The notes under the pieces: generated by a model
What the model saw: only the letters and a program-made list of their open reading frames with translations
The model's database searches: none
What the model was told of the DNA's origin: nothing
In this document: piece by piece, positions 1,929 through 13,365 of the stretch
Layout: every line of letters starts with the position of its first letter
How positions within the stretch are numbered: position 1 is the first letter of the stretch
Assembly (NCBI RefSeq): GCF_021155765.1
Contig: NC_060115.1
Coordinates: forward strand, 14,116,493 to 14,180,492
DNA from: Diprion similis
Taxonomy: Eukaryota; Arthropoda; Insecta; Hymenoptera; Diprionidae
Length of the DNA stretch: 64,000 bases
Reading direction: 5' to 3'
Program-made: the position numbers and the translations under genes

Positions 1929-2390
1929 ATGGAAAGAGGAAACGAGGAAGCCGGGCCATCGGGAATCACCCCCCGGATGGCATACCCCCCGGACAGACGA
2001 ACACGACAGACACCACACATACCGCTACTACAGACACCAGGACAACCACCACACCTACACAGATACGGACCAGACGGTATAGACAGCGCAGGCACACAAA
2101 CACCACCCACCACCACCACAACACGACGCACACTACTACCCACCCCGGCCGAATACACGCAACCACCCACAACCACACACACACCACCCACCACCACCAC
2201 AACACGACGCACACTACTACCCACCCCGGCCGAATACACGCAACCACCCACAACCACACACACACCACTCATCACCACCACACGACGCACACTACTGCCC
2301 ACCCCGGCCAAACACACCCAAACACACACGAACACACACGCATCATCCAGCACATACGCCACAAACCGGGGAACCAACACGAAAATTTAA
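1929..2390 (+). CDS. Post-pol Pro/Thr-rich ORF of element A with 27-residue repeats
   Basis: This 153-codon ORF begins 56 bases after the pol stop and starts MERGNEEAGPSGITPRMAYP. Its centre consists of nearly three copies of a 27-residue unit (TTTTTRRTLLPTPAEYTQPP), encoded by an 81-bp tandem repeat, so frame is kept through the array. I see no signal peptide or transmembrane segment, so it is not an obvious envelope gene. The related element B carries a proline-rich, zinc-knuckle extension in the same place, which suggests that this clade has an extra region after integrase. It may instead be a low-complexity open stretch in AC-rich DNA. Function unknown. Confidence 0.4.
   Translation: MERGNEEAGPSGITPRMAYPPDRRTRQTPHIPLLQTPGQPPHLHRYGPDGIDSAGTQTPPTTTTTRRTLLPTPAEYTQPPTTTHTPPTTTTTRRTLLPTPAEYTQPPTTTHTPLITTTRRTLLPTPAKHTQTHTNTHASSSTYATNRGTNTKI
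2101..2340 (+). repeat. 81-bp tandem repeat, about 3 copies
   Basis: Units start at 2101, 2182 and 2263, exactly 81 bp apart. The third copy is slightly shorter and more diverged. The repeat lies inside the post-pol ORF and keeps its reading frame. Confidence 0.9.
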
Positions 2391-3021: not shown

Positions 3022-3618
3022 TGTGACGTTGCACCCCGCGTGCACGTCACAATAAGCCCCAAACCCGCGGAGCGGGGCCGAACAATGCCGAACCGGCCCG
3101 GGCGCACCCGAAGACGCGCCGGGCCGGCCGGAGAAGGCACTCTTGTGCCAGCTACGAACGCCGCCGGACGCCAAGACTACCCAACAACGCTACAAAAAGG
3201 TCAGCTGATCTAACTCGATTTCACCGCACACCAACCACGCTCCGCACCGCCACCGCCAATCACCGCATCCAACCACTGCATCTTCCTCAGATCCCCTCAC
3301 ACACGCCCCCCCACTCCCCATACACACCCACACACTCACACACACCCACCCCTTTCACTCACACGTTCATTAGTAATAATTCATTGGTTTTTCAGGATTT
3401 AGATTTAAGAAGGACGCTAATCGGCTGGGGCGTGACCAGCCGCCACGCGGGACCGACCAATTTGTTAATTAGTTATTAAGATCCGTCGAAGAAGACCAAA
3501 TACACGCTACACTTTGTTTTCCACAACGCCGGCACGTGAATTCACTCTCCCCGTCTCTCGTCTCCCTCCTCTCTCCCCCCAAATAAGTGCGAGCTTCACC
3601 TCTCGTCACACAGACAAT
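3022..3618 (+). repeat. 3' LTR of element A (right end lost)
   Basis: The LTR starts TGTGACGTTGCACC and folds at once into a near-perfect hairpin (GTGACGTTGCAC / GTGCACGTCAC). The other LTRs of this type in the window start in the same way. No matching TTACA end is seen before integrase sequence of the opposite-strand element D begins near 3618, so the right part of this LTR and the 3' end of D were both lost at this junction. Confidence 0.6.
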
Positions 3619-4257
3619 AGCAAAGCGGATGTATTCATCCCAGTCTTTACCAGCATTCGTGTAATGCTTGACGTGTTCGGTGAGAACAAGGTGACTACGT
3701 TCTAGCGATCCGTTAGATTGTGGGCGGTAAGATGTAGTTCGAATTTGTTTTATTTTAAAGAGTTTACAAAGTTGCTTAATGACTGTGCTCATGAAATTCT
3801 GTCCTTGGTCTGTAAGTATTGCTCGAGGGGCACCGTAACGTGTAATGTATTCTTCCGCGAATGCTGCACCTATTGTTTTGGCAGTGGCGTCAGGTAAAGG
3901 GATGGCGTCCAGGAATTTCGTCAAGTTGCATTGTATCGTCAAAAGGTATTTGTTGTTTGATTTAGTAAGGGGGAGAGGTCCAACGATGTCTAGTGCTACT
4001 TTGTCGAATGCATCGGCAGGAGTATCTGTTATCACCATCGGCAACCTGGTTTTCACTCTTACTAGTTTTTCCCTTTGGCAACTCTCACAAGTTCTTATGA
4101 AGTCTTGGATTTGTTCTTTCATGTGCGGCCAAACATATTTTTGTCTGATGCGGTTGTATATTTTTGTGACGCCTTGATGACCGCCAATTAATGATTCGTG
4201 GCATTCTTCAATTATTTCTTTACGTGAACATTCGTCTGGGGTGACAGTCGTGTTGCG
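3618..4257 (-). pseudogene. pol: Element D integrase, truncated
   Basis: The zinc-binding part (HESLIGGHQGVTKIYNRIRQ... CESCQREK) is followed by the core with D (ALDIVGPLP), D (LTDQGQNF) and E (SNGSLERSH). The element sequence ends shortly after at DWDEYIRFA, near 3618. The open frame then runs on into unrelated sequence of the element A LTR down to 3469, so those last residues are not integrase. The C-terminal GPY/F region and the 3' LTR are absent. It lies one frame away from the macro-domain part. Confidence 0.9.
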
Positions 4258-4648
4258 GCAAAGCGTGATTTGAATTTGTAAGTCTGCGAAAAGATAAGAT
4301 GTGTGAAGGTTTCCGGAAAACACGAGGATCGAGTCCACCTAAACTGTCGTCCGTTATTGGGAATGCAAGGGATTTCGGAATTGAATCGGTTAAGACTGTT
4401 TTCAGTTTAGACGAGAGTTGAAAAATATCATATAGGTTGCTTTTATCTGATTCTTTTGATTTTAGTACTAGAGTAAAGATCCGTCGGTTGTCGTGCTTGG
4501 ATTCGATAATATCAAATTCCTGTGGACGGGGCCTCATAACTATATCTGGGTCAACGATATTATCGTGGGCAAGTTGTGATGGTATGCCTTTAGTCCAAGA
4601 GCAGTCTGTTGATATAAAGTGTGCATAATTGGTTTTGAGCATCAAAAG
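4258..4648 (-). pseudogene. Second, degenerate macro domain of element D
   Basis: This segment repeats the layout of the first macro domain: YAHFISTDCSWTKGIPSQL matches the AHCISADCQMSEGIASQL start, RRIFTLVLKSK matches the KIYNLVTK strand with its lysine, and SYLFADLQIQITLC matches the C-terminal strand. The glycine-rich IGCGLDKLEW loop has decayed to ITDDSLGGLD. A frameshift near 4315-4340 splits the domain: the last part is in the integrase frame. The domain looks like an old duplication that lost its binding loop, or a divergent partner domain; I favour decay. It sits directly before integrase. Confidence 0.65.
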
Positions 4649-5176
4649 ACCATCATTGGTGTCTTTGACATTGTCAGATACCGGTATGTCGTCCAAGTTG
4701 TCAACGAAGTTCGTGAAATCGTGACAGGCATCGGTCAAATCGTCGTCGACATTGGGATCAATGTCATGGTCAGAGTGTGTGGTTTCCATATCGGAGTCGG
4801 ATTGTCGGGCGCATGTATGGTATTCGGTATCCGTGAGCAAGTTGGCGCTGTTGTCGTTATCAGAGGCCAGTGTGGGTACTGAGGGAGGAGGTAGAGGGGG
4901 GTGAGTAGTAGAGTTCGCTGCCCTGGGGACAGCTGTTGGGCGTCTCTTAGCACGACACGGGGGTCCTACAGGCGGGGGCATGACGACGTTCGTGGCTGGG
5001 AGGGGAGGTGGGGTCGCGAGGGGTGCGACTGATTTGATCGGAGGTTGCGGTTTTTGACGCGGCGGACGAAGAGAAGGAGCGGGGTTACCAGATGTAGAAG
5101 GGATGGGGTCAGGTGAGGCGTTATCAACAGACACCGTTGTGTCGTCGTGGTGTGTGAGGGTTGAAAGCGGAGGGTC
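4649..5176 (-). pseudogene. Proline-rich and acidic linker between the macro domains of element D
   Basis: About 175 residues of low complexity (PPPLPATN, PPLPPPSVPT, then an acidic serine/aspartate stretch MDMETTHSDHDIDPNVDDD-like) join the two macro domains in one open frame. No motif recognised. It probably serves as a flexible spacer inside the polyprotein. Confidence 0.6.
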
Positions 5177-5591
5177 AAGGCGACAAACGGTGATATTCGT
5201 GTTTGAATCTTTGAAAATATAGTGGATCATTTTGCGCACCGTGCTCCATTCTAGTTTGTCGAGTCCGCAGCCTATTAACGGGATTGAGACAGATGTTACA
5301 CCATCTTCTTCCAAGGTTTTCCTAAAGTTGCCCAAGGTATCAAAAAAATCGTGTGGTAAGGGTTTGTCATTGTACTCTGGCTTTGTCACTAGGTTATAAA
5401 TTTTTCGTTTTCCGTGAGTGGTTGGAATAACGTCAGTCACAGTCGGATTAAATTTTCTGAGTTGTTCGCGATTTATAAATTTACGTTCTCTTAGCTGTGA
5501 CGCGATTCCTTCTGACATTTGGCAATCAGCTGATATGCAGTGAGCCAAATTATCTTTTTGCTGTAGTAAGTCTGCTTTTATTTCTTTAATA
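5177..5591 (-). pseudogene. TARG1/OARD1-like macro domain inside gypsy pol (element D)
   Basis: About 138 residues match the macro-domain fold of the TARG1/OARD1 group: the start EIKADLLQQKDNLAHCISAD with MSEGIA, a strand ending in YNLVTKPEYNDKP, and the loop SIPLIGCGLDKLEW followed by ITVCRL. The lysine in LVTK and the aspartate in GCGLD fall where TARG1 has its two catalytic residues, so ADP-ribose binding or removal of ADP-ribose from proteins is plausible. The domain lies between RNase H and integrase. The frame upstream is the same as that of RNase H, separated by a single TAA (5594-5596), so it was part of the Pol polyprotein. Residue matching was done by eye. Confidence 0.8.
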
Positions 5592-5593
5592 TA

Positions 5594-6803
5594 TTAATTA
5601 CGCATAAGAGGGAACGTGTCGCATTCTATAAGGAAATCGCTATAGGAAGGGTTGTGAATGTGAGGGGAGCTAGGTAAATCGGTAGCCGAATTAATGTTAT
5701 GAACTTCTGAGTTCATCTCTGAGGTTTGTAGGTCATCTGAGCTAGTTGAAGTATCCGAAAAGTAGCTCAGGTGTGGTCTCTTACGTGGTCCAGGGTTTGT
5801 AGAGGAATTCGTTTCTCGATGGCGTTTCGGATAGGGATGAACCGAGTGCGGAGGTGGGATGGAAAGGGGAGGTTTAAAAAGCATTGCGGCTTCTTCGTCA
5901 CTGGATTCGTCATCTGAGAGATCAGAAGAATCAGAGGGGTATATCATTTGATAGGTGGGTTGTGAGATTTTTTGGCATTTTAGCGGGGCCGGGTTCGTAG
6001 ATTCGTCTGTGCTCTGTCGAGGGTGTCGAGGGTACTGATGGGTCTCTTTGGTGCGTTTTTTGGGTCTGCTGTCAGAGGATTGGGTCGTTGGGCGAGGGCG
6101 TTTTGCATCTATAGAAAGGATTTGTGCGACGTCAGGCGGCGTGTTTCTTGATAGAGCATCGGTGTTGACATTCGCTTTTCTAGATTTATGTTTGGTATCA
6201 AAATCGTATTCTGCTAGTTCTAGACTCCATCGTAATAAACGAGAATTAGGCTTCTTAACGCTTCTTACCCACTTGAGAGGCTCGTGGTCTGTAACTAAAG
6301 TGAATTTCTGACCATAGATGTAGGGGCGGAAGTGGTTGATGCTCCAGTAGGCGGCTAGAAATTCTTTATCGGGCACCGAGTAGTTTAATTCAGCGGATTT
6401 GAGTGCTCGGGATGCGTACGCTACTGGTAAGTCGGCACCGTTCTTATCTTGACTCAGAACCGCACCGATGGCGAATTTTGACGCGTCGGTAGTGAGCGTA
6501 AACGGCTTGCTGAAGTCCGGGTATTGGAGAATTGGCTCTTTGCATAAACAATCACGTAAGGTTTCGAAGGCAGATTGGTGTTCGGATGTCCAAATAAAAG
6601 GGGTATCCTTCTTGGTTAGATTAGTGAGGCATTTTGCAATTTTTCCGAAATTTGGGACAAACCTGCGATAATAACCCAAAAAACCGAGGAACTGTTCAAC
6701 ATTTTCCGGATTTTTCGGGACAGGATATTCTTTCACAGCTACTAACTTTCCGGGGTCAGGTCTAACCCCTGACTCAGTGATAAGGTGACCAAGGTAAAAC
6801 GAC
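5594..6803 (-). pseudogene. pol: Element D: RT C-terminal part, RNase H and acidic tail
   Basis: The RT thumb/connection (FLGHLIT-like region, then QFLGFLGYYRRFVPNFGK) leads into RNase H (LTTDASKFAIGAVLSQ, then VTDHEPLKWVR and NTDALSR). After RNase H come about 170 residues rich in Ser, Asp, Pro and Lys (SSDLSDDESSDEEAAM), unusual for gypsy pol, ending at TAA 5594-5596 just before the macro domain. A run of six T (6804-6809, A on the coding strand) marks a frameshift that separates this part from the RT palm. Confidence 0.9.
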
Positions 6804-7551
6804 TTTTTTGCGCAGGAATTGGCATTTGTCTGGCTGCAGAGTCGAGCCGGCTTCAGTTCGTCTTTTCATCAATTTTCTGAATTTAATTTCATGTTCTTGT
6901 AAATTTCGAGCGCAAATAACTATGTCATCCAAATATACGAAAATCTCATCGCCTTGTAAGCCTAGCAGGACTTGATACATGAGCCTTTGAAACGTGGCAG
7001 GGGCGTTTTTTAATCCGAAGGGCATTCGGGAGAATTCATAGTGACCCCGGGGCGTCGAAAACGCAGTTTTTGCACTATGATGTTTGATGCACGGGGTGCA
7101 TGAGAATTTGATGAAAGCCGGAAGCAAGGTCGAATGTAGAGACATATTTAGCTGAGCCAAGTTGATCAAGAATTTCGGTGATGTCGGGCATTGGATAGGC
7201 GTCGCCGATTGTTCTTTCGTTGAGCTTTCGGTAGTCGATCACCATGCGCCATCGTTTATTACCGTCAATATCGGGTTTTTTGGGGACGATCCAAACCGGA
7301 GAATTGTAAGGAGATGCGGAATGTTTAATAAGGTCTTGCCGAAGGAGTTTATTGACCTGGGATTCGATTTCATCTTTGTGGATTTTTGGAAAACGATATT
7401 GTTTGGTGTGAATTGGTGTGTCGTCCGTCGTGGGGATAGTGTGATGGGTTCGATTGGTGTGGCCTAATGGAGCATGGCTGTGCTCAGTGGTTCGTCGAAT
7501 TTTTACAGGGTTACCGTTGGAGATGCTATCTCTGCGACAGATTCGTTGCAA
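6774..7551 (-). pseudogene. pol: Element D reverse transcriptase palm and fingers, frameshifted
   Basis: The RT has its N-terminal fingers (RQDLIKHSASPYNSPVWIV), motif A (STFDLASGFHQI), MPFGLKNAPATFQRLM and the catalytic YLDD (FVYLDDIVICARN). One frameshift lies near 7085-7100 between motif A and the MPFG motif, another near 6804-6809. RT would copy the element RNA into DNA. All expected catalytic motifs are present, so decay is by small indels. Confidence 0.92.
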
Positions 7552-7724
7552 TTGAACACGTAGGAATAAGCGATGCCGTTCTGATTTCGAACTATTGCTT
7601 CACCACAAAGAACATTGTTGCCTAAATTAATGTGTTTACGGTAGCCTTCTTTGATATCTGGGTTTGCAACTATTATCGGGATGACTTTCGCGGTGCGGGC
7701 CTGTATTGTAATAACACGTGCGGT

Positions 7725-8143: not shown

Positions 8144-9249
8144 CTAGTTGTTTGCATAGCTCGCGGGCGCGTTCTCCCCGCGGGCAGTGTTGCGGTTTAA
8201 ATCTTGATTCGAACTTACATGGTTTTGGTTATCACGCGGGAGAGATCTACATTGGTCTGATGTGTGGCCTCTGCGCTTACAGTTATCGCAGTACAGTTTG
8301 TCGCTTCTGCTGGGTTGGTTGCACTCATTGTAAAAGTGGCCCATTGTGCGACATTTGGTACAGTATCTTGTATTTTGCAGGCGATGGCATTCCGTGATCA
8401 AGCGACCTCGGTGGTTCCAGAATTGGCAAATAGTCGGTGAGATCCTCGTTTGATCTGCGGGAGGCGCGAGGGTGCTTGCACCGAGCGCTTGGGCATAGGA
8501 CATGGATTCTATACCAGGCGCTTGCTGATGCGCGTAACTAGGTGTGGGCAATGACATTAGAGGGGGGATGAGGGAGGGGGTTATGGACACCTGAGGTGGA
8601 GGGGTATCGTTTTGGCAGGCAGAGACGGAAATTGGGGGATACATAGGTGTAGGAGGGGTACAATATTGTGCAAAGCGTTGCATTTGACGGTTATTTAACT
8701 CGGTCTCCTCGCTTTCGGCGATATCAAAGGTAGAGAGTGGTCTGTTGATAGCTATTCTCCACTCTAATTCTGGCCTAAGCCCTCTAATGAATGTTCTAGC
8801 AGTGTCTTTTCTCAAGTCATTTAGCAAGGCGCTTGCTATGTCTGGCGGGTATTTTTTTCGATAGCTTTGCTTATTTCGTTTGATATTACTCTTATTCTGC
8901 ATGAGTAATCGATGACGCGCTCACGCGGTTGTTGGATAATTCTATCTAATTGAGTTGATAATTGACGTACGGGGATGTCTGGACGGTATGCTCGGCTGAG
9001 GGCCGTTATAAGGTCTTCGACGTCGTTGCAATTAATGCTTACTAAATATTGGGAAGCGGGACCGGTAATTTTTGATTGTGCAAATTTAGCAAGGGTCATT
9101 TTGTCTGAAGCTCTAATGAGGGTTTCCACGTGGCGCAATTGTTTCACAAATTGGTCAAAAGGCATGTTGTTGCCATCGAACGCAGGGATCGTCGGTAAGA
9201 CGTCTTTTACTGACCAAAAAGATGAACCGGTCTCATTAGTTGGTGCCAT
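8144..9249 (-). pseudogene. gag: Element D gag, frameshifted
   Basis: Gag starts at the ATG 9249-9247 (MAPTNETGSSFWSVKDVL) and carries a capsid-like helical region (FDQFVKQLRHVETLIRAS). The frame changes between 8840 and 8900. The second part holds a degenerate knuckle (CQFWNHRGRLITEC) and two good CCHC knuckles (CTKCRTMGHFYNEC and CDNCKRRGHTSDQC), which would bind element RNA. A Pro/Gln-rich spacer precedes the knuckles. Confidence 0.88.
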
Positions 9250-9586
9250 ATCGATTTTCGTAGATGGGCAATGGGTACAGGGATGAAATATCGACTTATT
9301 ACTAAGGATTACAACGAACTTACAGAGCAAAGATGAACACAAACACAAGGTACAGCATGGTTGTAGGCGACTGAAGGCAGGTGAGACTTGAAGATGTGAT
9401 GCACGTCGTCCGTCGGCAAGAGGAGGGTGTAGGCGGGGAAGTCCGCTGCGTGTTGAAGAGTCTCGGTTTGGTGTTCCAGGTATCTGAGTGATGCCAATCT
9501 TGGGACCAGATTCTTGTTCCAGCGTCGCAGGCGTCCAGAGACGGGTGGGGGCTAATCACAATTTTGGGTTCCGAAAGGTGATGTGT

Positions 9587-10005
9587 GGTATAAATCGGCT
9601 GTCGTCCGTATATTCAGTTCGTTGCGGGTTCTGAATTTGTCAGGTTCGCACTTGATTTGCCCGCGAACACTCTTGACGTGGCTATCACTTATTGATATGA
9701 TATCGGGAGCTTTGCCTATTAACACTTTTCTCGCGTAGATTTTCCGGAGCACTGCACAAAGGGTAGGTCGACGGCAAAATCGCCACCGCTGTGGTATAAC
9801 TCGGCTGTTGTTCGTATATTTCCACTCGTTGCACAGTTCGTTGCGGGTTCTGAATTTGTCAGGTACGCACTTGATTTTCCGGCGAACACTCTCTACGTGG
9901 CTATCACTTATTGATATGATATCGGGAGTTTTGTGTATTAACACTTTTCTTGCGTAGATTTTCCGAAGCACTGAACAAAGGGTAGGTCGACGGCAAAACC
10001 GCTGC
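9587..10005 (-). repeat. Duplicated leader of element D, two ~206-bp copies
   Basis: Two direct copies start at 9587 and 9793 (GGTATAA...TCGGCTGT), and each includes CTATCACTTATTGATATGAT and GGGTAGGTCGACGGCAAAA. The copies differ at roughly one base in ten. They lie between the primer site and gag, where packaging signals usually lie. Confidence 0.85.
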
Positions 10006-10010: not shown

Positions 10011-10013
10011 GAA

Positions 10014-10455
10014 TGTTACGGTACAGGGCGACGGCAGTCCATGTACCCACCCGAGGTGTTGGTTCGGGTGCTATTTTTGTTGGTTCGTAGTCGTCGCCGT
10101 CTTCGTTCAGGGAACGGAAGGGAAAGAACAATAATTAGAGAATGGTTTTAACTTTTATTTTGATTTGGAAATTGGATGAAGTCGATGGGGAGTAGTTGAG
10201 GTCATGTTTTTTGGGGAACGGGAGTTGAAGCTAAATGTGGGAGGTAAGAGCGTTGGGATACGAGTGAGGCTTTTGCGTGAGAAAATGAGCGAGGATCCAG
10301 GGTGGAGGGGAATCGAAATAGCAAGATAAGGGCGATAGCGAGTGGTGTAAGGCAAGATGGAAATAGGATGACAAGATATGGAGTGTGGGAATGGCAGGTA
10401 AAGACGAGCGTCGAGGAAGGTGGGAGAGACGTGAGGCGGGACGTCGGACGTAACA
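10014..10455 (-). repeat. 5' LTR of element D
   Basis: The 442-bp LTR has inverted ends TGTTAC...GTAACA. It lies right next to the primer site. The outer flank is AT-rich (ATAAAAATG...). The second LTR is lost, so neither age nor target duplication can be read. Confidence 0.75.
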
Positions 10456-12289
10456 CACCTATAAAAATGTTAAATGTAATATTTTTTTTCAATTTGATAT
10501 GAAGTTGAATAAATAATCTGTATCATTTACCGAAACCAGACCAACAATATTATATTTTTTACCTTACAAATCAACTCGACCTCATGCATTTAATTTTCAC
10601 GTTTGAACTGCTAGTTTTCGATTTTTGCCTCAACGAAGCAGGGACTGTTTTGTCAAATTCAACTGTATCAGCTTGGCCAATGAAACTCTGCGTGACAGTT
10701 TGTGAAGATTTAATCGGCGCATGGTCTCATCAAAAAAAATCAGAGCAAAAATCGTGATACAGAATAACAGATGTACCTGGGATCGACTGAACAAATCTTT
10801 ACCACGAATTTCGAAGAAATTCAAGGTCCGTAATCTCATTTATCAATATTATAATTCGTTAAATATTTAAGAGGTGAAGCTAAATTTATACGCTGACGAA
10901 TCACCAATAAATCAATCACCTGAGAAGTACGATAATAATAAAAATCTGATAATTTTAAATACAATTTCAAATCAAAGTCAAGCTAATTATAAAAAATCGT
11001 CAATAACTGACATCTTTTATTTCAAATGAGAAATATTTTTTATTTCGTAAATCGAATTAAGCTTAACAAAGTCCAATTGAATTAGCTGGACCTTCAAACG
11101 ATGACGTCTTTGTCAAATTGTACATTTACACTGAAAAGCATATTTTCTTAGTCCTTGAACATAGTCGAGCTTTTCGCTGACAGAATTTTTCAGATCCACA
11201 TGTATGTTACGACAAATATGTAGCCATCTTGCAAGGTATGTTTAAAAAAGAAAAAAAAAAAAAAAAAAAAACCGATGGGTAAGAAGAAAGAAAAGAAAAA
11301 TTGTTCGATTGAGCGTCGAAACCAATCATCCTTTCCAAACACTATTCCCTCGACGTGAAAATCGTCGCGAGTTCACAATTTTCCTTTTTTTTTCAGTTTT
11401 TTTTCTTTCAGTCACGTCGCATCTTTTTTTCACTCTATTCCTTTACTTTTGTTTTGTATGCAGAAATACGAAACGAGTTCGGAAAATGTGTGCGAATTTG
11501 GTGAAACAGGATCTTGACATTTTTTGATAACAATTTTTGAGAATAGATCATTTTTAACTACAATAATCAGTTCCAAATCGCATTTAAGGATCCAAAATAA
11601 TATTAACAATTATTTGTCTTATGCGTTAAATTTGGAGTAAATAATTTATCGCTCGATACAGAATGAGATTCGAATTTAAAATATTTCCGCTGTTTCAAAG
11701 TGAATTTTTTAATCCATCTCTGATTTACTGTAGAATAATTTTCTTAAAAATAAAAAATCGAATGTGATGAAAAAAGACAAACTTGACGAATCTACGCTTT
11801 CTATTTTCGAAGGCGTCAATCCCGCGATAATCCATCATCGTAAAAATATGGCTCCATGTTTTTCGGATCCAAAAACATTTGTCAAAAAGCTGGCCAAAGT
11901 CTTAAAGCAACTTTTTAGATATAGTCATGTTTCAATGTCGATAGAACTAAATTTGCCTAAAAAAATGTACACATTATGTGTGAAACAAAATGTAAAAAAA
12001 ATTATACGGCCCTTTACCATCAAATTCGCCTTTCGGCATATTCGTTATTACAACATTAGACACGTGATATGTTCCTCAAAATTGAGGCACGATACGGATT
12101 AATTGGGAGTTACACTCTGATGAACAAAGGATCAATAAAACCTCTTAGTCTTCAGATAAGATTATCTAGACTTACCGTTTTGGTACTTGGAGCATAACTC
12201 GAAAGTACTCGGTGAAATAATACGCGACCAGTTGAGCACGTGTAACACTTGTTTCTGCCTTGTGAGTCGTTTCATTATAGGTAGGTACA
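10456..12289. other. AT-rich sequence without genes
   Basis: About 1.8 kb of AT-rich DNA. The longest open stretch (11764-12102, 112 codons) has no recognisable domain and a composition like the flanks. A poly-A tract lies at 11249-11271. I see no promoter, RNA gene or element end. Confidence 0.6.
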
Positions 12290-13365
12290 CTTGGCCACTG
12301 TGACGAGTCCGTTACGTTGGCAACGCTAAATCAGCCCGCAGCGCCACTGCCGGCTGATGGTGAAACAGGTTCAATCTTGGTGAGCATAACGTAACCCATC
12401 ATCCATGACCCTCGAGTTTCATACTTTTGGGTTAGGTTCGCGAAACTGGCTCAACCTTTGTGAACATAAGATAACTCATGACCCATGGATATCGTATTTT
12501 TAGGTTAGATTCTACGGTCATGAGTTATTTTTGTGGACCTATTATGTTCACTAGGGTGTTCTTTAAAAAGGTCATTTTCGATTTCGACTGGCCCAACCCT
12601 CAAATCAATTCCGAACAATTAAAAAATAATTCCTCAATTTTTTTCAGATTTTTATAGCAAGATTAACCCGTGCCCAGAAGAATGTGGATTTCCCCGATTT
12701 AACCGAACAAATATCGATAAAATTTGGTTTTAAGGGAGTTTTTTGGGCCGGTGCCTACGCGTCTGAACTCAAAATTCAAAAATTCAAAATGGCGGATTCA
12801 ATATAGCGGACCAAAATCCAAAAAGTCATTCGGTTTCGATAAAACTCAGAGCTCGGGGGTTTTCGAAATGGCTGATTACGAATCTGAGCTTGAAATTACG
12901 AAACTCAAAATGGTGATCCAGTATGGAGACATCAAGTGACTTCTGGGATTTTGATCCACCATGTTGCATCCACCATTTTGAATTCTCAAATTCCGACTTC
13001 AGATGCGTAGTCAGCGACCCAAAAAACTCCCCTAAAACCAAATTTCTTACCGGGCACGAATTAGAGTTGAGATAAAAACCTGAAAAATGCGGGAATTATT
13101 TTTTAATTATTTGGAGCTGACTTAGAGGGTGAGTCGGTCGAAATTCAAAAATGATTTTTTTGATAACCACCCTAATGAACACACACATCACACACAGCTT
13201 GATACCAAAGAAATGCACAGCCACCACAATATGTTTACAAAGATCACGTCCGTTTCACAGCCGACCGACGGTGGCGCTGCGGTCTGATTCGGAACTGCAA
13301 ACGTAACTGACTCATCGAGAAAATTAGCCATTTCAGAATCACCGCCGCCAAGTGTACGTGGGAAA
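12290..13365. repeat. Outer foldback element with ~70-bp arms
   Basis: The left arm (about 12290-12372, core CCGCAGCGCCACTGCCGGCTG) matches in inverted form the right arm (about 13249-13365, core CAGCCGACCGACGGTGGCGC). Arms share GTACACTTGGC at the outside, GTTACGTT in the middle and GTGAAAC at the inside. Between the left arm and the inner MITE a ~100-bp segment is partly duplicated (GGTTCAATCTTGGTGAGCAT / GGCTCAACCTTTGTGAACAT). A smaller foldback element sits inside. Confidence 0.65.
12553..13173. mobile_element. Foldback MITE, ~620 bp, almost wholly palindromic
   Basis: The ends are TAGGGTG... and ...CACCCTA, and similarity runs inward for about 300 bp on each side, so the transcript could form one long hairpin. 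Open stretches on the two strands (12724-12939 + and 12826-13041 -) have similar peptide sequences only because of this palindrome. No coding capacity. Confidence 0.8.

What the first reader, a model, noticed from the sequence alone, without database searches (positions are those of the whole stretch)
5177..5591. TARG1-like macro domain carried inside a gypsy retrotransposon Pol
Between RNase H and integrase of element D lies a macro domain with the motifs AHCISADCQMSEGIA, LVTK and IGCGLDKLEW. The Lys and Asp that TARG1/OARD1 uses for catalysis both appear conserved. A retrotransposon that removes or reads ADP-ribose marks could counter a host PARP response, help integration at damaged DNA, or steer targeting. 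The first two ideas are inference; the domain match is direct.
Basis: partly seen in the sequence, partly recalled or inferred. Interest (0 to 1): 0.88.

Follow-up and report, generated by a model that had tools for sequence, protein, structure and literature searches.

The report
TARG1-like macro domains in sawfly retrotransposons
A family of jumping genes in what looks like a sawfly genome carries, inside its polymerase-integrase protein, a close copy of the animal enzyme TARG1, which removes ADP-ribose marks, followed by a second altered copy; this may let the elements counter the host's ADP-ribosylation (PARP) response.

Summary
The domain is real. On the minus strand at about 5174-5593 lies a TARG1/OARD1-type macro domain (phmmer against human TARG1 E=1.5e-18; AlphaFold pLDDT 92, best PDB match TARG1, TM 0.89). 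The Pfam Macro model alone stays under its cut-off (17 of 22 bits). The equivalents of TARG1 Lys84 and Asp125 are kept in 34 of 34 same-family copies read.

The window copy is a fossil, but the genome search lists 20 Pol-length frames (1676-1841 aa) with the domain, in three families; 8 were examined and have it between RNase H and integrase. Two copies have identical LTRs. Athalia and Neodiprion sawflies carry relatives. In the diverged pairs tested, dN/dS is 0.14-0.25. Five other gypsy-type Pols in the window lack the domain. Related Pols carry it after integrase or before RT, and a tree test disfavours one origin (p 0.004), which suggests repeated capture.

Best reading: an ADP-ribose eraser acting during reverse transcription or integration. 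Function is inferred, not shown. Prior art found: macro-domain ORFs in fish endogenous retroviruses.

The parts
10013..10459 (-). 5' LTR of the element (the element reads on the minus strand); about 87% identical to the LTR of a full-length copy elsewhere in the genome
   Evidence: blastn of L031 8379-8812 to window 10459-10013; L051 to 10467-9812
9615..10002 (.). repeated units in the 5' leader (two copies of 169 nt, 93% alike)
   Evidence: the repeat finder D1
8147..9348 (-). gag region in two overlapping open frames (weak gag and CCHC matches below cut-off)
7078..7551 (-). reverse transcriptase, partial (sequence missing next to it compared with L031)
   Evidence: Pfam RVT_1 34.7 bits; gap between homologous blocks
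6167..6616 (-). RNase H
   Evidence: Pfam RT_RNaseH 134 bits; tblastn
5174..5593 (-). M1: TARG1/OARD1-type macro domain, the finding itself
4249..4669 (-). M2: second, altered TARG1-type domain; its frame is broken in this copy
   Evidence: tblastn with M1 and with M2 of L031; M2 family against TARG1
3610..4248 (-). integrase, zinc-binding part and part of the core; the element is cut off near 3610
   Evidence: Pfam Integrase_H2C2 78.8 bits, rve 36.3 bits; end of homology to L031

Best explanation
The element belongs to a group of Ty3/gypsy-type LTR retrotransposons whose Pol holds, between RNase H and integrase, a captured TARG1-type macro domain (M1) with the catalytic residues kept and a second altered copy (M2). 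M1 most likely works as TARG1 does: it removes ADP-ribose from Asp/Glu of proteins, or from phosphate ends of nucleic acid. Carried in Pol next to integrase, it would act in the particle or pre-integration complex and undo the marks that a host PARP-1-like enzyme sets on the complex, on the linear cDNA ends or on gapped integration intermediates. M2 keeps the fold but has mostly lost the glycine pattern of the ADP-ribose loop, so it is more likely a binding or structural part. Shown: identity, position, conservation, purifying selection in the pairs tested, recent insertion of two copies. Inferred: enzyme activity, place of action, PARP as opponent.
For: Identity. Lys84 and Asp125 equivalents: K in 36 of 36 rows and D in 36 of 36 rows of family A (34 distinct copies, two places read twice); K in 16 of 16 and D in 15 of 16 M1-class rows across families and species. 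Same slot in several families and in Athalia. Purifying selection: M1 L037/L047 dS 0.50 dN 0.07 ratio 0.14 p 1.5e-10; M1 L040/L042 ratio 0.19 p 2.5e-4; M2 L040/L042 ratio 0.15 p 6e-5. LTR pairs identical over 430 and 445 bases, with 4-base target-site duplications. Several other positions in Pols, including one before RT. The host has its own OARD1 genes and three places with a PARP catalytic domain. In Drosophila most mobile elements misregulated without PARP-1 go up, most of those in the second listing being gypsy-superfamily LTR elements (PMC7712786, passages).
Against: No activity is measured. Pfam Macro is under its cut-off for the window copy. Several recent family A copies show near-neutral ratios in M1 or M2 (for example L026, L027, and M2 of L015), partly expected in decaying copies. 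M2 often keeps Lys and Asp (both in 6 of 11 rows), so calling it inactive is uncertain. P0007 and P0008 show only an M2-like domain, so M1 is not needed in every related element. One M1 (L048) has lost Asp125. For an alphavirus macro domain in mosquitoes, ADP-ribose binding rather than hydrolysis seems to matter (PMC12632316, abstract). The Drosophila authors note that the effect of PARP-1 loss may be indirect.
Confidence: 0.5

Rival explanations
1. One reading: M1 (and M2) binds ADP-ribosylated chromatin or DNA-damage sites and steers integration, much as chromodomains do for chromoviruses; hydrolysis is secondary.
For: Position directly before integrase in most families and after integrase in P0005 and P0081; chromodomains at the end of Pol are known in chromoviruses (PMC12440569, passages); ADP-ribose binding is the selected property of an alphavirus macro domain in mosquito (PMC12632316, abstract).
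Against: A pure reader need not keep the Lys84/Asp125 pair, kept in M1 across families at about 32-55% identity. In P0006 the domain is far from integrase, before RT.
Confidence: 0.2
2. Nucleic-acid-end processing: M1 removes ADP-ribose from phosphate ends of the element's own RNA or cDNA, keeping ends usable for reverse transcription or strand transfer.
For: TARG1 is reported to hydrolyse ADP-ribose phosphoesters at nucleic acid ends (PMC7050489, passages); the domain sits between RNase H and integrase, which act on such ends.
Against: No substrate evidence; in P0006 the domain lies far from both.
Confidence: 0.15
3. Passenger or spacer: a captured gene piece kept only because it is in frame, without a function tied to ADP-ribose.
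For: Linkers around the domains are long and evolve freely; some recent copies show ratios near 1; only M2-like in P0007 and P0008.
Against: Purifying selection at larger divergence, catalytic residues kept, recurrence in several positions, while 5 of 5 other gypsy-type Pols in the window do without.
Confidence: 0.1
4. One-off insertion or assembly artefact at this locus.
For: The window copy is broken.
Against: 150 scored matches (of 228 candidates) in the genome, 20 in Pol-length frames; relatives in Athalia rosae, Neodiprion lecontei and N. virginianus.
Confidence: 0.01

Closest known systems
TARG1/OARD1/C6orf130 (ALC1-like macrodomain class), free-standing animal enzyme
   Same: Sequence (E 1.5e-18), fold (TM 0.89), Lys84 and Asp125 equivalents.
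   Different: Here it is a part of a retrotransposon Pol, duplicated in tandem, without the intron pattern of the two host OARD1 genes.
Macro-domain ORFs of epsilon-like endogenous retroviruses of ray-finned fish (Basta et al. 2009, as cited in PMC4977317, passages; the original was not held)
   Same: A macro domain carried by a reverse-transcribing element.
   Different: There the review calls them additional open reading frames of fish retroviruses; here the domain lies inside Pol of gypsy-type insect elements and in tandem. Class and sequence of the fish domains could not be compared.
Viral macrodomains of coronaviruses and alphaviruses (Mac1, nsP3)
   Same: A macro domain within a replication polyprotein; thought to counter host ADP-ribosylation (PMC12363162, seen in a search listing; PMC12632316, abstract).
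   Different: Another macrodomain class: chikungunya nsP3 appears at rank 20 with 11% identity against 35-38% for TARG1 at ranks 1-8.
Scale drop disease virus ADP-ribose glycohydrolase (P0116)
   Same: A TARG1-type domain captured by a virus.
   Different: A separate 140-aa protein of a virus with no Pol of this kind.
Chromoviruses (chromodomain at the end of gypsy Pol)
   Same: A captured chromatin-related domain in gypsy Pol (PMC12440569, passages).
   Different: Other fold, other place, and a reader rather than a likely eraser.

Membership tests
TARG1/OARD1-type macrodomain (M1) | Macro fold, closest to TARG1 | tested here: met
   Model pLDDT 92.2; TARG1 entries fill ranks 1-8 of the Foldseek list
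TARG1/OARD1-type macrodomain (M1) | Sequence closest to TARG1/OARD1 | tested here: met
   phmmer E 1.5e-18; profile search
TARG1/OARD1-type macrodomain (M1) | Catalytic Lys84 and Asp125 | tested here: met
   Family A K and D in 36 of 36 rows, 34 distinct copies; 16 of 16 K and 15 of 16 D across families
TARG1/OARD1-type macrodomain (M1) | ADP-ribosyl hydrolase activity | not testable with these tools
   No assay
Pfam PF01661 Macro, model hit over cut-off (a detection threshold, not a defining trait of TARG1) | Score over the curated cut-off | tested here: not met
   17.0 of 22 bits for the window copy; 31.6 bits for P0005
TARG1/OARD1-type macrodomain (M2) | Macro fold and TARG1 as nearest relative | tested here: met
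TARG1/OARD1-type macrodomain (M2) | Catalytic pair and glycine loop kept | tested here: not met
   K and D both in 6 of 11 rows; GxG before Asp125 in 2 of 11 rows
Ty3/gypsy-type LTR retrotransposon | LTRs TG...CA with 4-base target-site duplication | tested here: met
   2 of 2 copies with both ends held; not for the window copy, which lacks its 3' end
Ty3/gypsy-type LTR retrotransposon | Pol order RT - RNase H - integrase | tested here: met
   No named reference elements were in hand
Viral macrodomains of the MacroD type | Closest relatives are viral or MacroD domains | tested here: not met
   TARG1 ranks 1-8 at 35-38% identity; viral domains from rank 20 at about 11%

The most novel reading that the evidence does not exclude
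Gypsy-type elements of insects have captured TARG1 from hosts several times, in at least three places of Pol, and one lineage turned it into an eraser-plus-altered-copy pair next to integrase. That would make ADP-ribosylation an antagonist of retroelements in insects, with macro domains as their counter-weapon, as in RNA viruses of vertebrates.
Probability: 0.35. Interest if true: 0.9.

Novelty: new variant of a known kind. Interest (0 to 1): 0.76.

Why it matters
Macro domains are known as counter-defence parts of some RNA viruses. A TARG1-type eraser kept inside the Pol of recently inserted LTR elements would point to ADP-ribosylation (PARP) as a host control of retroelements, and gives a small purifiable domain with which this can be tested. 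It also shows that retroelement Pol can take up host enzymes in several places, which annotation by the Pfam Macro model alone misses.

Tried and rejected
One-off insertion or artefact: rejected. Pfam as sole test: too weak for this branch. A single capture of all retroelement macro domains: disfavoured (AU p 0.0041 with 25 against 23 rows; p 0.021 for the 13 M1 rows, which include L046, whose M1-like domain lies after integrase). Limits of that test: the groups were named after the first tree had been seen, the rows are short (139 columns) with long branches, and two very long rows (L046 Ma and Mb) were dropped; one partial row (L045 M2) was dropped. RNase H and integrase trees neither show nor exclude one origin of the macro-bearing Pols: support is low, 2 changes of label in RNase H, 1 in integrase with 37/89 support. 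A host OARD1 with introns exists, so the retroelement domain is not simply the missing host gene. L054 against L031 and L037 against L047 have M1 and neighbouring parts at different divergences, which looks like exchange of segments and limits the dN/dS reading of single pairs. VIA-align was run for M2 only. Paper searches (open-licence library only, 10 searches) gave one relevant prior report, the fish endogenous retroviruses; a macro domain inside gypsy Pol was not found in those listings, which does not show that it is unpublished. For P0005-P0008 and P0081 no host is known.

Full report
What is there. The finding lies on the minus strand, inside a gypsy-type element that runs from a 5' LTR near 10459 down to a break near 3610. 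The domain M1 covers about 5174-5593. phmmer finds human TARG1/OARD1 at E 1.5e-18 over nearly its whole length; Pfam Macro gives 17.0 bits, below its cut-off of 22. The AlphaFold model (34-row alignment, pLDDT 92.2) has TARG1 entries at ranks 1-8 of the PDB list, best E 2e-14, TM 0.89; viral macrodomains follow from rank 20 at about 11% identity. A profile of nine such domains gives 3200 hits at E<=1e-6 of 3817 candidates, 120 listed, most of the named ones OARD1.

The window copy is a fossil, others are not. The window copy has an in-frame stop before M1, a frame change in M2, missing RT sequence and no 3' end. The genome (269 Mb, 60 contigs) holds 150 scored matches of 228 candidates; by my count 20 lie in frames of Pol length: 8 of 1801-1802 aa (family A), 6 of 1841 aa (B), 6 of 1676-1724 aa (C). 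Of the 20, eight were examined by domain (L031-L034, L036-L039): RNase H, M1 and integrase were found in order in 8 of 8; M2 by tblastn in 5 (L031-L034, L036) and by reading and profile in L037; L038 and L039 were not read separately for M2 but are near-identical in DNA to L037 or to each other. Two family A copies have LTR pairs identical over 430 of 430 and 445 of 445 bases and 4-base direct duplications at their ends; the first spans about 9.5 kb. These are recent insertions.

Relatives elsewhere. A protein search gave three sawfly proteins: Athalia rosae (M1, M2, then the integrase zinc-binding part), Neodiprion lecontei and N. virginianus (M1; the models end or jump before M2). Athaliidae and Diprionidae are separate families of Tenthredinoidea. 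That the window comes from a diprionid sawfly is inference: the N. lecontei M1 is 82% identical to that of L031. A second search gave P0004 (M1, M2 between RNase H and integrase), P0007 and P0008 (only an M2-like domain seen there), P0005 (macro after integrase, Pfam 31.6 bits) and P0006 (macro before RT). P0081 joins integrase C-terminal domains to a macro domain. In the window, 5 of 5 other Pols with RNase H and integrase have only about 220-300 nt between the two and no macro match, against about 1.9 kb in this element.

Conservation. Across 16 M1-class rows, the Lys84 equivalent is kept in 16 and Asp125 in 15 (L048 is the exception); in 11 M2-class rows Lys is kept in 8, Asp in 7, both in 6, and GxG before Asp125 in 2 (the partial L045 M2 was dropped). 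In family A, 36 of 36 M1 rows keep both; two places are in the set twice (L008/L032, L009/L033), so 34 distinct copies; in M2 of the same rows the Asp position is Gly in 34, Ser in 1 and unread in 1. K84/D125 numbering was checked on the 152-aa OARD1 P0044; that these are catalytic comes from PMC7050489 (passages), which prints Glu125 for the second residue; the sequence there is Asp.

Selection. Pairwise Nei-Gojobori counts (my script): M1 L037/L047 dS 0.498, dN 0.069, ratio 0.14, p 1.5e-10; M1 in family D 0.19-0.25; M2 in family D 0.15, p 6e-5. L031/L054 has pS 0.205, pN 0.089 in M1 and 0.515, 0.136 in M2. Against: in young family A copies the counts are small and some are near neutral (M1 of L026 and L027; M2 of L015, 1 synonymous to 5 non-synonymous), while RNase H and integrase are mostly tighter. 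M1 appears less constrained than RNase H and integrase. Some pairs look recombinant.

Origin. The tree (50 rows, 139 columns) puts M1 of families C, E, F, G with the two host OARD1 genes (94/94 in the reduced tree; 87/94) and M1 of family A and the Athalia, Neodiprion and P0004 rows elsewhere; P0005 goes with an unnamed cellular-type row (99/83). Holding all 25 retroelement rows as one clade lowers the likelihood by 41.8 (AU p 0.0041); holding the 13 M1 rows, by 27.5 (p 0.021). Because the groups were named after seeing a first tree and branches are long, I read this as suggesting, not proving, more than one capture.

How it may work. Shown: a TARG1-type domain with the catalytic pair sits in Pol of recently active families. 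Known from others: TARG1 hydrolyses ADP-ribose esters on Asp/Glu and ADP-ribose at nucleic acid ends (PMC7050489, passages); in Drosophila lacking PARP-1 most misregulated mobile elements rise, many of them gypsy-superfamily (PMC7712786, passages; the authors allow an indirect cause). The host genome has three places with a PARP catalytic domain over cut-off, one strong. Inferred: M1 removes PARP marks from the integration complex, cDNA ends or integration sites. A mosquito study of an alphavirus macro domain warns that binding may matter more than hydrolysis in insects (PMC12632316, abstract).

Other features. Family C carries a further ORF matching the Monjiviricetes fusion glycoprotein (241-243 bits in L038 and L050), and a family D copy an ORF matching baculovirus F (L041, 121.6 bits), so some macro-bearing elements are retrovirus-like. 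Capture of a chuvirus-type glycoprotein is known for BEL-Pao elements (Anakin; PMC7642597, passages). No such ORF of 250 aa or more was listed after pol in the held family A and B stretches.

Novelty. In ten searches of an open-licence library the relevant prior report was macro-domain ORFs in fish endogenous retroviruses (Basta et al. 2009, cited in PMC4977317; original not held). I rate the find a new variant of a known kind: a captured macro domain, here of TARG1 type, in tandem and inside gypsy Pol.

Noticed in passing
L038:793-1719, L050:7437-8363, L041:380-2059: Macro-bearing elements of family C have a downstream ORF matching the Monjiviricetes fusion glycoprotein; a family D copy has one matching baculovirus F.
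   Followed up: partly
L046 (about 4130-7640): A Pol with another layout: an altered macro domain between RNase H and integrase, and after integrase a further altered macro domain, an aspartyl-protease-like stretch and an M1-like domain with one stop.
   Followed up: partly
P0006, residues about 270-350: Between the N-terminal macro domain and RT lies a stretch with a cysteine-protease-like look (GDGNCG motif, recalled from OTU proteases; Pfam gives only a sub-threshold Peptidase_C33 match).
   Followed up: partly
G000 C2:13509259-13512686 (L058, L059): The host seems to have two neighbouring OARD1 genes, each split in the same place, presumably by an intron.
   Followed up: partly
L037/L047 and L031/L054: M1 and its neighbourhood differ in divergence from the rest of the pair, as if segments were exchanged between subfamilies.
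   Followed up: partly
P0116: Scale drop disease virus has a separate TARG1-type protein.
   Followed up: no
window 2093-2332 and 2755-2937: Tandem-like repeats of 81 and 61 nt downstream of another gypsy-type Pol frame.
   Followed up: no
window 12558-13167: Two nested inverted repeats (118 nt arms, 81% complementary; 85 nt arms, 71%).
   Followed up: no
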